From NCBI GenBank assembly GCA_030446805.1, contig JAUJMO010000003.1, positions 310,001-374,000 on the forward strand: a DNA stretch of 64,000 bases, read 5' to 3'. The translations under genes and the position numbers were made by a program. The first letter of the stretch is position 1. The number at the start of each line of letters is the position of its first letter. This DNA is from Caulobacteraceae bacterium (lineage in GTDB: Bacteria; Pseudomonadota; Alphaproteobacteria; Caulobacterales; Caulobacteraceae). Under the pieces are notes generated by a model. It was not told the origin of the DNA, did no database searches, and was given only the letters and a program-made list of their open reading frames with translations. Positions 47,455 to 50,861 of this stretch are shown one piece after another.

Positions 47455-48542
47455 TCGCACGCGTTTGGCCGCTTGCTGCGGCCGCCGCCCTTCTGATGCT
47501 GGGCGGCTGCGACCGGGGCGGCGGCCCGGAGGACGCGGCCTCCACGGGCGGGGGCGGCCGACCCGCGGTGGTGCGCTTTTCCGTGCTGCCGACGGAGAAC
47601 TCCGCCAATCTGCGCGCGCTGTGGACGCCCTTCTTCGCCGACATGGAGCGGCTCACGGGCCTGCAGGTGGAGCCGGTGTACGCCTCCAACTACACGGCGC
47701 TGGTGACGGCCATGGCCGCCGACCAGATCGACGCGGGCTGGTTCTCCAATGCATCCGGGCTGGAGGCCGTGCGGCGGGGCGGGGGCGAGGTGTTCGCGCG
47801 TTCCTCGGACCCCTCGGGGGTGGACGGCTACCAGTCGGTTCTGATCGTCAACACCCGCAGCTCGCTCACGGTGGACGACGTGCTGCGCTGCGACCGCAGC
47901 CTGGACTTCGGCCTGGGCGACGCGCGCTCCACCTCCGGCACCCTGGCGCCCATGACCTATCTGTTCGCGCCGCGCCGCATCGCGCCCGAACGCTGTTTCG
48001 CGACCGTGCGCTCGGCCAACCATGAGGCCAATCTGCTGTCGGTGGCCAATGGCGTTCTGGATGTTGCGACCAACAACACCACCAACATGAAGCGCCTGGC
48101 GGCCGCCCGGCCGGAAACGGGGGCGCGGGTCAAGATCATCTGGACCTCGCCCACCATCCCGGAAGACCCCATCGTGCGGCGCCGCGACCTGGATCCGGCG
48201 GTCAAGGAGAAGCTGCGCCAGTTCTTCCTCACCTATGGCACGGGGACCGGTCCGGAACCCGAGCGCCAGCGGGAGGTGCTGCGTTCGCTGGACTTCGGGA
48301 CCTTCCGCCCCGCCGACGACACTCATCTGCTGCCCGTGCGCGAAATGGAGGCGACCGAGCGCCTGCTGGCGGCCCGCAACGCCCGCAACCGCGCGGCGGA
48401 GGAGGCGGCGCTCACGGAGTTGGAGCAAGTCCGCAGCCAGCGGATTGAGGCCGACGCGCGGGCGGGCGTCGTTCCGCCGGCGCCCTTGATCAACCCGCCC
48501 CCCGCCCCGCCGGGATCGGTTCCCGATCCGTCCACGCCATGA
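47451..48542 (+). CDS. phnD: Phosphonate-binding lipoprotein PhnD
   Basis: The 363-residue protein has lipobox LGGC near residue 20. The binding core shows [48 protein letters not shown] and [13 protein letters not shown] (S-T-S-G phosphonate loop), followed by a Glu/Arg-rich helix and a Pro-rich tail. The latter tail of about 60 residues is longer than usual. It is the substrate receptor for PhnCE; no C-P lyase genes are in the window. Confidence 0.93.
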
Positions 48543-49363
48543 GCTCCGAAGCCGCCGGGGAGGCCAGGCTTTCGCCGTCCGCCGTTCGCGCGCCCACCCT
48601 GTCGCTGCGCGACCGGTCCGTGAATTGGCTCCTGTGGGGGGGACTGGCGTTGTTGCTGGCGCTGAGCTTCGGCTCGGTGGAGATGAACAAGCTTCCCTTG
48701 CTGTTCTCCAACTCCGCCCGGTCGGCCGAGCTGCTGTCCGGCTTCACGCGCCCGAACTTCGCCGAATGGCGGCTGTATGTGGCCGAGACCTGGGAAACGG
48801 TGCAGATGGCGCTGTGGGGCACGGTGCTGGCCGTGCTGGCCGCCCTGCCGCTGAGCCTGCTGGCCTCGCGCAACCTGGCGCCCTGGTGGGTGGTGCGGCC
48901 CGTGCGCCTGCTGATGGACGTGCTGCGTTCGGTGAACGAGCTGGTGGTGGGCCTGCTGTTCGTCGCGGCGGTCGGATTGGGGCCGTTCGCCGGCGTGATG
49001 GCGCTCGCGCTGCACACCACGGGCGTGCTGGCCAAGCTCTTCTCCGAAGCGGTGGAGGCGGTGGACCCCGGCCCGCTGGAAGGCGTGCGCGCCACGGGCG
49101 CCTCGCGCGTCGAAGAGATCGTCTGGGGCGTGCTCCCCCAGGTGGCGCCTTTGTGGACGTCCTTCGCCCTGTATCGGTTCGAGGCCAATGCGCGCTCGGC
49201 CACGGTGCTGGGCTTGATCGGCGCCGGCGGGATCGGGGCCTTGCTGGTGGACACCATGAACGCCTTCGCCTTTGACCAGACCTCCGCCATCGTGCTGGTG
49301 ATCATTGCGGCGGTGAGCGCGATCGACTTCCTGTCCCAGCTGATCCGGCGGCGGCTGCTGTAG
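48539..49363 (+). CDS. phnE: Phosphonate ABC transporter permease PhnE
   Basis: The 274-residue permease has about six helices. The family region RSVNELVVGLLFVAAVGLGP and the EAA-like loop EAVEAVDPGPLEGVRATGASRVEEIVWGVLP (coupling with PhnC) are visible, followed by RSATVLGLIGAGGIG. It overlaps phnD by 4 bp. The stop codon lies one base before the first 7-bp repeat unit of the next element. Confidence 0.94.
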   Translation: MSSEAAGEARLSPSAVRAPTLSLRDRSVNWLLWGGLALLLALSFGSVEMNKLPLLFSNSARSAELLSGFTRPNFAEWRLYVAETWETVQMALWGTVLAVLAALPLSLLASRNLAPWWVVRPVRLLMDVLRSVNELVVGLLFVAAVGLGPFAGVMALALHTTGVLAKLFSEAVEAVDPGPLEGVRATGASRVEEIVWGVLPQVAPLWTSFALYRFEANARSATVLGLIGAGGIGALLVDTMNAFAFDQTSAIVLVIIAAVSAIDFLSQLIRRRLL

Positions 49364-49364
49364 A

Positions 49365-49392
49365 TTCTAGGTTCTAGGTTCTGGGTTCTCGG
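49365..49392 (+). repeat. Left heptamer array, four units
   Basis: The units are TTCTAGG, TTCTAGG, TTCTGGG and TTCTCGG in direct succession, ending one base before the ATG at 49393. No ribosome-binding site precedes that ATG. Confidence 0.92.
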
Positions 49393-49780
49393 ATGGACGT
49401 TCGATCGTACCGCGACCTGCGGGTCTGGCGTAAGGCGATGGCGCTAGCCGCGGACGTCTACCCTCTCACGTGCACCATGCCCAAGCATGAGGAGTATCGG
49501 CTGTCGGCTCAGCTCATCCGCGCGGCTGCTTCCGTCCCCCGCCAACTTGGCGGAAGGTCACGGACGGGGGACACGCAAGGACTACGCGCACTTCGTCAGC
49601 ATCGCCAAGGGTTCACTGGCCGAGGTGGAGACATTTCTGCTGCTCGTGTCTGAGCTCGGCTTGGCGCCACCCGAGCCATGCACCTCCGCCTTGGCCCAAG
49701 CCGAGGAAGTTGGGCGCATGCTGACCGCTCTCCATGGCCGTCTGTCCCCCAGACCCCAACCCCTAGAACCTAGAACCTAG
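49393..49780 (+). pseudogene. Frameshifted four-helix-bundle protein gene (23S rRNA intervening-sequence family)
   Basis: The first frame gives RDLRVWRKAMALAADVY and LSAQLIRAAASVP; the second continues NLAEGHGRGTRKDYAHF, IAKGSLAEVETFLLL and ends in the right repeat array. This is the S23/IVP four-helix-bundle pattern, broken by one extra C in the run at 49536-49540. Restored length is about 128 residues. It may be a pseudogene or a homopolymer sequencing error. Confidence 0.85.
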
Positions 49781-49789
49781 AGCCTAGAC
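49762..49789 (-). repeat. Right heptamer array, four units in inverse orientation
   Basis: The units are CCTAGAA, CCTAGAA, CCTAGAG and CCTAGAC. Two degenerate units (CCCAGAC and CCCAACC) may precede them at 49748-49761. They are the reverse complement of the left array. Confidence 0.92.
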
Positions 49790-49829
49790 ACTCGAACTTC
49801 TGTCACGATCCCGCGGCAAAAGCCCCCCG

Positions 49830-50861
49830 ATGCGGTTCCTCATACTCCTGCCCCTGTTGCTCGCCGCCTGCGGTCCCCGCGAAGTCCCGGAGCCGACCGT
49901 GTGGGCTGCGGGATCCTCCACCGTCTTTCCCTTCGCCAGTCGAGCGGCGGAGAACTTCGCGCGCAAGACCGGGCGTCCGGCCCCGCGGGTCGAAAGCCTG
50001 GGCACGGGCGGCGGGATCAAGGCCTTTTGCGACGGGGTGGGCGAGGGCACGCCGGACATCGCCCTGGCTTCCCGCCCGATGAAGCCCGGCGAGTGGGACG
50101 ACTGCCGCGAGGCGGGGGTGACCGTGGCCGAGGTCCGCATCGGCTCGGACGGGGTGGTGGTGGCCACCGACCGCCAGGGCGCCGACTACCGGCTCAGCCT
50201 GGAGCAGCTCTACCGCGCGTTGGCCGCGGAGACGCCGGGTCCGGACGGCCGCTTCATCCCCAACCCCAACGCGACCTGGCGCGAGGTGGACCCGGCGCTG
50301 CCGCCCGTGCGCATCCAGGTCTATGGCCCGCCGCCGACCTCGGGCACCCGCGACGCCTTTGTGGAGCTGGGCATGGAGGCGGGCGCGAAGAAAATCCCCG
50401 CCCTGGCCGCGCTCAAGGAGCAGGACGAGGACGCCTTCAAGGCCCGCGCCCACACCCTGCGTGAGGACGGCGGCTGGGTGGATGCGGGCGAGAACGACAA
50501 TGCGCTGCTGCAGACCCTGACCCGCACGCCCGGCTCCCTGGGCGTGTTCGGCTTCAGCTTCCTGGGCCAGAACCGCGACCGGGTGAAGGCGGCCACGGTG
50601 AACGGCGTGGCGCCTTCGACCGAGACCATCGCCGACGGCTCCTATCCGCTGGCGCGCACCTTGTATCTTTACGTGAAGAAGCAGCACCTCCAGCGAACGC
50701 CGGCGATCCGGGCCTATCTGGCCGAATTCCTGTCGGACGCCGCCTCCGGCAAGGGCGGCTATCTGGCCGACCAGGGCATGATCCCGCTGCCCGCCGATGA
50801 GTTGCTGGCCGCGCGCGGGGGGCTGGCGGACCTGCCGGACATGCCCCGGCCGGCGGAGTAG
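49830..50861 (+). CDS. pstS: Phosphate ABC transporter substrate-binding lipoprotein PstS
   Basis: The 343-residue protein has lipobox LAAC. The phosphate-binding residues are in AAGSSTVFPFA, SLGTGGGIKAFCDGVG, DIALASRPMKPGE and GPPPTSGTRDAF (T-S-G-T-R). It delivers phosphate to PstCAB, which is not in this window. The gene lies next to phnCDE but is separated from it by the heptamer-bounded unit. Confidence 0.94.
   Translation: MRFLILLPLLLAACGPREVPEPTVWAAGSSTVFPFASRAAENFARKTGRPAPRVESLGTGGGIKAFCDGVGEGTPDIALASRPMKPGEWDDCREAGVTVAEVRIGSDGVVVATDRQGADYRLSLEQLYRALAAETPGPDGRFIPNPNATWREVDPALPPVRIQVYGPPPTSGTRDAFVELGMEAGAKKIPALAALKEQDEDAFKARAHTLREDGGWVDAGENDNALLQTLTRTPGSLGVFGFSFLGQNRDRVKAATVNGVAPSTETIADGSYPLARTLYLYVKKQHLQRTPAIRAYLAEFLSDAASGKGGYLADQGMIPLPADELLAARGGLADLPDMPRPAE

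What the first reader, a model, noticed from the sequence alone, without database searches (positions are those of the whole stretch)
49365..49789. Minimal unit: four-helix-bundle gene enclosed by inverted arrays of a 7-bp repeat
Four TTCTAGG-type units on the left face four CCTAGAA-type units on the right, and the gene between them fills the whole space: its start codon follows the last left unit directly, and its stop codon lies inside the right array. S23/IVP-type four-helix-bundle proteins are known inside 23S rRNA intervening sequences and as accessory proteins of diversity-generating retroelements; their many solitary genes have no known function. Symmetrical heptamer arrays tied to the ORF ends suggest a transmissible or structured RNA/DNA unit. 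Movement is inference.
Basis: partly seen in the sequence, partly recalled or inferred. Interest (0 to 1): 0.8.

Follow-up and report, generated by a model that had tools for sequence, protein, structure and literature searches.

The report
Mobile repeat-bounded four-helix-bundle element, decayed
A small broken gene between two mirror-image sets of 7-letter repeats is a worn-out copy of a tiny mobile element found in many bacteria and at least one archaeon; its gene family has had no known function, so this offers a first testable one.

Summary
The architecture is general: of 187 distinct S23/IVP (PF05635) loci from 87 genomes, 161 have matching inverted arrays on both sides, against 16 of 247 other ORFs. 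The usual period is 7. The unit differs from copy to copy, follows the protein rather than the genome, and changes in step on the two sides. Array-gene-array is a mobile unit: on closely similar cyanobacterial plasmids the ~0.42-kb block is present or absent, with a 5-bp target duplication at two of seven sites examined, and related copies sit at unrelated sites. Most elements lie in operons, in the direction of transcription, with the left array at the upstream gene's stop codon. Gene-less arrays are concentrated in genomes that carry the gene and often share the resident element's heptamer; 22 of 30 Xanthomonas copies read have the published GGGAATC repeat in the left arm. The window holds a single broken copy between phnE and a pstS-like gene; the sister species keeps the arms with most of the gene deleted. 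Not shown: how it moves or what the protein does. I infer that the protein acts on its own heptamer duplex.

The parts
49365..49392 (+). left arm: four tandem heptamers TTCTAGG, TTCTAGG, TTCTGGG, TTCTCGG
   Evidence: sequence; inverted repeat with right arm; pairing in fold
49393..49780 (+). S23/IVP four-helix-bundle gene, frameshifted: frames 49393-49653 and 49487-49780
   Evidence: PF05635 48.6 and 59.8 bits against cut-off 33.8 for the two halves; ORFs
49762..49789 (+). right arm: four inverted heptamers CCTAGAA, CCTAGAA, CCTAGAG, CCTAGAC; contains the stop codon of the second frame
   Evidence: sequence; inverted repeats I1-I3
49361..49363 (+). stop codon of the upstream phnE-like gene, one base before the left arm: the inferred target
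   Evidence: ORF 48539-49363; same junction type in relatives
48539..49363 (+). host gene upstream: transporter permease (phnE-like)
   Evidence: PF00528 64.3 bits
49830..50861 (+). host gene downstream: pstS-like substrate-binding protein
   Evidence: PF12849 137.5 bits

Best explanation
It is a decayed copy of a mobile element of about 0.4 kb: tandem-heptamer arm, S23/IVP four-helix-bundle gene, inverted heptamer arm. SHOWN in relatives: gene and both arms are inherited as one unit; the unit is present or absent as a discrete block, at two sites with a 5-bp target duplication that overlaps the upstream stop codon; it mostly lies in operons in the direction of transcription; the arms stay complementary while their sequence diverges; the protein is under purifying selection; gene-less and truncated forms occur at the same sites. 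INFERRED: the element is read from the host operon. The arms fold the transcript into a long hairpin enclosing the IVP coding region, a substrate for RNase III as in the 23S rRNA intervening sequence of Coxiella. The IVP protein binds its own heptamer duplex and promotes copying of the element, and perhaps of gene-less array pairs with the same heptamer, using host enzymes for cutting and joining. The window copy between phnE and a pstS-like gene is a fossil: frameshifted here, internally deleted in the sister species.
For: 161 of 187 loci with complementary arms above the 95% control level against 16 of 247 other ORFs. Array sequence tracks protein identity (within-genome shuffles: r 0.215 against 0.056 +/- 0.024, maximum 0.129 of 1000). 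Own left-right pairing beats swapped pairing in 91 of 101 close pairs. Empty and occupied plasmid sites with 5-bp duplications GTAAT and TTCTA. Related elements arm to arm at unrelated sites. Both neighbours parallel in 60, both antiparallel in 6, of 88. Left arm within 15 nt of an upstream stop codon in 78 of 104 measurable. dN/dS 0.05-0.14 in nine pairs. Sister species has the same site with the gene mostly deleted. No sigma-70-like promoter found at 49300-49850.
Against: 26 of 187 loci do not reach the arm threshold. Only two of seven plasmid sites gave a clean 5-bp duplication, and at one of them a second occupied copy (L333) matches only 4 of 5 bases. Gene-less arrays outnumber gene copies in some genomes, e.g. 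G104. No catalytic domain and no source of transposase or reverse transcriptase was identified; none was searched for. At the gene-less yaiI site own partner is best in only 2 of 9. Arms contain stop codons, which inflates the stop-codon count. Linked inheritance alone could explain array-protein tracking; binding is untested. The consensus promoter scan covers only sigma-70 types.
Confidence: 0.66

Rival explanations
1. MITE-like passenger: the arms are terminal inverted repeats moved by ordinary host transposases, and the IVP gene is cargo with another role, for example tuning translation or stability of the operon message.
For: Inverted ends plus a 5-bp duplication are usual for DNA transposons; no recombinase lies in the element; gene-less pairs exist.
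Against: Arm sequences differ widely between copies and track the IVP protein, whereas a shared transposase would need shared ends; the IVP gene is the common part across phyla.
Confidence: 0.17
2. Domesticated regulatory RNA: arms and IVP form a post-transcriptional switch or processing site that hosts keep in operons; mobility is rare and incidental.
For: Purifying selection, operon setting and direction, concerted arm change, the same nuoC-nuoD position in several genera.
Against: Presence and absence on closely similar plasmids, many copies per genome at unrelated genes (1-19 per genome in 46 genomes), decay to remnants.
Confidence: 0.12
3. Independent repeats: heptamer arrays arise by replication slippage and palindrome correction, and IVP genes merely tend to lie beside them.
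For: Gene-less array pairs exist with units that differ between species at one site; slippage and palindrome correction are known processes (recalled).
Against: 161 of 187 against 16 of 247; arrays concentrate in IVP-bearing genomes; unit tracks protein; whole-unit presence and absence.
Confidence: 0.03
4. DGR-type accessory: the protein serves a reverse transcriptase in trans, as Avd does, and the arms are its RNA handle.
For: 7 of 11 relatives match the Avd model NF033474, best E 2.6e-7.
Against: All 11 match TIGR02436 far better (best 8.5e-39); no template/variable repeats or reverse transcriptase were seen, but they were not searched for.
Confidence: 0.02

Closest known systems
S23p-encoding intervening sequence (IVS) of 23S rRNA, as in Coxiella burnetii (Warrier et al. 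2016, PMC4990558; passages seen)
   Same: About 0.43 kb, S23/IVP ORF, complementary ends (28-bp stem there), tandem heptamers (GACAGAT) just upstream of the start codon; called a selfish element.
   Different: There inside 23S rRNA and excised by RNase III; here in mRNA operons, with arrays at both ends, and with insertion shown in relatives. None of 187 loci gave a match to four 23S motifs.
GGGAATC heptamer repeats of Xanthomonas and GGGGA(C/T)T of Nostoc (Rehm et al. 2015, PMC4692102; passages seen)
   Same: Same repeat: GGGAATC lies in the left arm of 22 of 30 Xanthomonas IVP copies read; 70 of the published cases in X. campestris are convergent pairs.
   Different: The paper text has no occurrence of 'helix bundle' or 'S23'; it treats the repeats as G-quadruplex formers.
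TAACTGA heptamer repeats of Beggiatoaceae and cyanobacteria (PMC4679880; passages seen)
   Same: Intergenic tandem heptamers with suggested horizontal spread and no known mechanism.
   Different: Described as direct repeats, with one indirect set; no occurrence of 'S23' or 'helix bundle' in the text. Whether they belong here was not tested.
REPIN/RAYT system (PMC3116915; search listing only; details recalled)
   Same: One protein gene bounded by inverted repeats, with gene-less palindromes of the same family dispersed in the genome.
   Different: RAYT is a tyrosine transposase; IVP is a four-helix bundle with no catalytic domain detected. Repeats here are tandem heptamers that vary by copy.
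Avd accessory protein of diversity-generating retroelements
   Same: Homologous: 7 of 11 relatives' proteins match the Avd model, best E 2.6e-7.
   Different: TIGR02436 fits all 11 far better; no retroelement parts were looked for.

Membership tests
S23/IVP protein family (PF05635, TIGR02436) | profile match above the curated cut-off | tested here: met
   two halves at 48.6 and 59.8 bits against 33.8
S23/IVP protein family (PF05635, TIGR02436) | one intact open frame | tested here: not met
   two frames, frameshift near 49540; intact homologues exist
23S rRNA intervening sequence | located inside a 23S rRNA gene | tested here: not met
23S rRNA intervening sequence | complementary ends that close a hairpin around the ORF | tested here: met
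   fold (z -4.7)
23S rRNA intervening sequence | excision by RNase III | not testable with these tools
   needs RNA mapping
MITE or insertion sequence | terminal inverted repeats | tested here: met
MITE or insertion sequence | target-site duplication of fixed size | tested here: inconclusive
   5 bp at 2 of 7 plasmid sites, imperfect at a third; not testable for the window copy, for which no near-identical empty site was found
MITE or insertion sequence | encodes or is moved by a known transposase | not tested
   none encoded inside the element (Pfam); transposases elsewhere in the genomes were not searched
REPIN/RAYT | RAYT tyrosine transposase gene | tested here: not met
   only PF05635 detected
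Diversity-generating retroelement | reverse transcriptase with template and variable repeats | not tested
   no search made

The most novel reading that the evidence does not exclude
A separate class of mobile element, spread over many bacterial phyla and at least one archaeon, that moves with no recombinase of its own. A non-catalytic pentameric protein recognises its own tandem-heptamer duplex, as RNA or DNA, and directs insertion at stop codons of genes transcribed in operons. It maintains a genome-wide family of gene-less array pairs of the same heptamer, which would account for long-unexplained heptamer repeats of Xanthomonas, Nostoc and Fibrobacter. The 23S rRNA intervening sequences would be the copies that landed in rRNA operons.
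Probability: 0.33. Interest if true: 0.95.

Novelty: new variant of a known kind. Interest (0 to 1): 0.84.

Why it matters
Solitary S23/IVP genes are common and have no assigned role, and intergenic heptamer repeats have been described separately in several groups. The data here join the two: gene and repeats are one inherited, mobile unit whose repeat sequence follows the protein. That gives direct tests of binding and of movement, places the 23S rRNA intervening sequence as a probable special case, and predicts which heptamer a genome should hold.

Tried and rejected
Chance or low-complexity origin of the arrays: rejected by shuffles, offset windows and ORF-bounded controls. A fixed TTCTAGG-specific element: rejected, units differ by copy. 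Known RNA family: no Rfam match up to E = 1 in 49200-50000. Phage cargo: no tblastn match at E 1e-5 in 50,697 phage records with one query. Defence system: one of 11 proteins matched PADLOC at E 0.0064 to Cas11e, taken as chance. Covariation at the gene-less yaiI site as proof of pairing: weak, own partner best in 2 of 9. Plasmid sites B, D, F and G gave no clean junction. The reversed-pattern control of the TAGG search is not independent: it also hits G036 23 times, because such arrays can match both patterns, and 23 other genomes 1-3 times. The reversed control of the AGTGGTT search hits six genomes, most in G114 (22); that of the AGGGAAT search hits none. MAFFT alignment of the window with L026 misplaced the right end and was replaced by two BLAST pieces. 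Prior work linking IVP genes with heptamer arrays was sought; the one link seen is the Coxiella IVS paper. These searches cover open-licence PMC, with no preprint server held and most subscription journals missing. Structure prediction was not run; Pfam and NCBIfam matches and solved relatives were judged enough.

Full report
WHAT IS THERE. Between a phnE-like gene (48539-49363) and a pstS-like gene (49830-50861) lie four TTCTAGG-type heptamers (49365-49392), a S23/IVP (PF05635) gene, and four inverted units (49762-49789). Exact TTCTAGG occurs 4 times in the window, all here (0 of 100 shuffles reach 4), and the two-unit 14-mer occurs in the 3.04-Mb assembly only here. The gene is broken: its halves are in different frames (49393-49653 and 49487-49780). 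It is the only PF05635 locus found in the genome. The predicted RNA fold pairs the arms over 24 consecutive pairs (z -4.7). No sigma-70-like promoter or terminator was found at 49300-49850.

RELATIVES. In 100 related genomes, 9 including the window's own carry PF05635. By eye, all 12 matched places outside the own genome (L011-L022) have matching inverted short tandem arrays, with a different unit at nearly every copy, and an 8-bp unit in part of L017; 11 of 11 later scored pass the threshold (L022 is truncated and was not scored). They come from Proteobacteria, Planctomycetes, Bacteroidetes, Cyanobacteria, Clostridia, Chloroflexi, Fibrobacteres, Acidobacteria, candidate phyla and one Methanophagales archaeon. 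Left-right complementarity exceeded the 95% level of 2898 offset windows from the same loci in 69 of 80 and the 99% level in 60 of 80.

I pooled 221 fetched loci and dropped 34 (33 duplicates, 1 at a contig edge; L071, flagged as short, was kept). That left 187 distinct loci in 87 genomes, not an unbiased sample: they are best-scoring hits. Of these 161 pass the 95% level and 143 the 99% level, against 16 and 6 of 247 other ORFs in the same loci. In the 161, the best period of the left arm is 7 in 131, 8 in 18, 9 in 6 and other in 6. Left arms are rich in G and poor in C on the coding strand: skew is positive in 139 of 161, mean +0.50, against +0.10 in the flank. The 116 clear heptamers share a loose consensus A-G-(G/T)-(G/T)-(A/G)-T-T (2.94 bits; position-shuffled units mean 2.29, maximum 2.37). 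The IVP stop codon lies in or within 15 nt of the right arm in 95 of 156 measurable.

THE REPEAT FOLLOWS THE PROTEIN. In two multi-copy genomes (G134, G126) copies with similar proteins share a unit across genomes while copies within one genome differ. Over 161 elements, mean array similarity between genomes rises from 0.05 at 30-40% protein identity to 0.30 at 60-70% (85 pairs), 0.52 at 70-80% (14) and 0.81 above 80% (2). Same-genome pairs below 50% identity stay at 0.05-0.08. In the 115 elements of 34 multi-element genomes, shuffling arrays within each genome drops r from 0.215 to 0.056 +/- 0.024 (maximum 0.129 of 1000). For 101 cross-genome pairs with at least 60% protein identity, own left-right pairing (mean 39.2) beats swapped pairing (26.7) in 91, loses in 9, ties in 1. 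So gene and both arms are inherited together and the arms change together. Linked inheritance explains this without binding; binding is inferred.

MOBILITY. tblastn with one IVP query found 20 plasmid records, mostly cyanobacterial. Seven sites were compared with similar plasmids. Site A (between a 1152-bp CDS and a second CDS that precedes a VirB10-like gene): L306 and L313 are occupied. Six records of the same backbone at about 97% identity lack the element (some may be one strain under several names); three were read at the junction (L309-L311). The empty sequence has one GTAAT; the occupied has GTAAT on both sides of 423 bp (L306) or 409 bp (L313). At the same site Nostoc C052 has a truncated copy (L312) and Brasilonema a gene-less array pair (L314). 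Site C: L323 and L333 occupied; L322, L329 and L330 empty. TTCTA flanks 413 bp in L323; the right copy in L333 reads TTCTG. In both sites the duplication overlaps the upstream stop codon. Site E shows TAATG/TTATG, imperfect. Sites B, D, F and G are not clean. Elements at A, C and D are 78-82% identical over 416-419 bp, arm to arm, but lie at unrelated sites.

On chromosomes, in one genus (28 genomes, 24 loci) the nuoC-nuoD junction is empty in 5, holds an IVP element in 5, other genes in 10, another gene plus a gene-less pair in 1, and is unreadable in 3. At the window site the sister species keeps both arms and the first part of the gene. Of 28 phnE loci of the family outside the genus, 7 have phnE followed by a pstS-like gene with no such arrays between.

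SETTING. By a longest-ORF estimate, of 88 elements with near neighbours 60 have both neighbours parallel to IVP, 6 both antiparallel, 22 mixed; 6 more were left out as far. One element per genome: 51, 5 and 19. An inverted element would present the same hairpin, so the bias suggests the gene is read with the operon. In the 104 of 161 elements with a measurable upstream ORF, the left arm starts within 15 nt of its stop codon in 78 (median 4 nt; co-directional gaps elsewhere median 62 nt, n 146). Arms contain stop codons, so part of this is built in; the plasmid junctions are the independent evidence. dN/dS is 0.05-0.14 in nine pairs with dS of at least 0.6, several saturated; three closer pairs are uninformative, one of them 0.86 at dS 0.012.

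GENE-LESS ARRAYS. TAGG-type triple heptamers number two or more in 6 of 9 IVP-bearing relatives and 5 of 91 others (Fisher p 2.8e-5). AGTGGTT doubled: predicted from known arms in 3 of 46 genomes, found in all 3 (84, 12 and 5 hits; the 5 lie at the IVP locus), but also 9 in G133 and single hits in 2. AGGGAAT doubled: predicted in 3, found in all 3 (474, 27 and 1), but also 68 in G118 and 1-3 in 5 others. Arms were known for only part of the copies in those genomes. In the genus Xanthomonas 32 of 35 genomes carry IVP. All 30 loci read pass the 95% level and 28 the 99% level; GGGAATC is in the left arm of 22, and four have a GGGACC type. GGGAATC is the heptamer reported in 186 arrays in X. campestris with no mention of this gene (PMC4692102, passages). 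At the yaiI site of another genus, 9 of 30 loci read have gene-less pairs with varied units.

HOW IT MAY WORK. Shown: mobile unit, arms that follow the protein, operon setting, purifying selection. Inferred: the operon message folds into an arm-closed hairpin; RNase III cuts it, as shown for the Coxiella 23S IVS, whose cut site lies at the first of its GACAGAT heptamers (PMC4990558, passages); IVP, a pentamer in its solved relative (stated in that paper; 2GSC matches at 3.4e-37) and a relative of Avd, binds the heptamer duplex and promotes copying through host enzymes. The copy in the window is probably dead.

Noticed in passing
L183, L184, L186, L188, L192, L194, L197, L199, L200, L202, L204 (nuoC-nuoD junction): A different small gene (looks like a GFA-type zinc enzyme; name recalled, not searched) occupies the same junction in 11 of 24 loci of the genus, sometimes doubled: the site is a recurrent landing place.
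   Followed up: no
L325 1100-1480 (Anabaena sp. 90 plasmid pANA02): An IVP element with a very long left array (over 250 bp of AGGTGAC/AGGGAAC units) sits between cas6 and cas4 of a type I-D CRISPR operon; a close relative (L331) lacks it.
   Followed up: partly
L046, L047, L193, L195 right junctions: After the right arm at nuoC-nuoD there is a short GCGGAGCG stretch just before the nuoD start, possibly a ribosome-binding site that comes with the element where the empty site has overlapping genes.
   Followed up: no
L045 left and right flanks: In Chloroploca each side of the IVP gene carries its own array hairpin rather than one arm.
   Followed up: no
L279 (Nostoc mirabile, G118): A chromosomal relative of the plasmid GGAGTCA elements, with the same arm unit and the same protein start as L306.
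   Followed up: no
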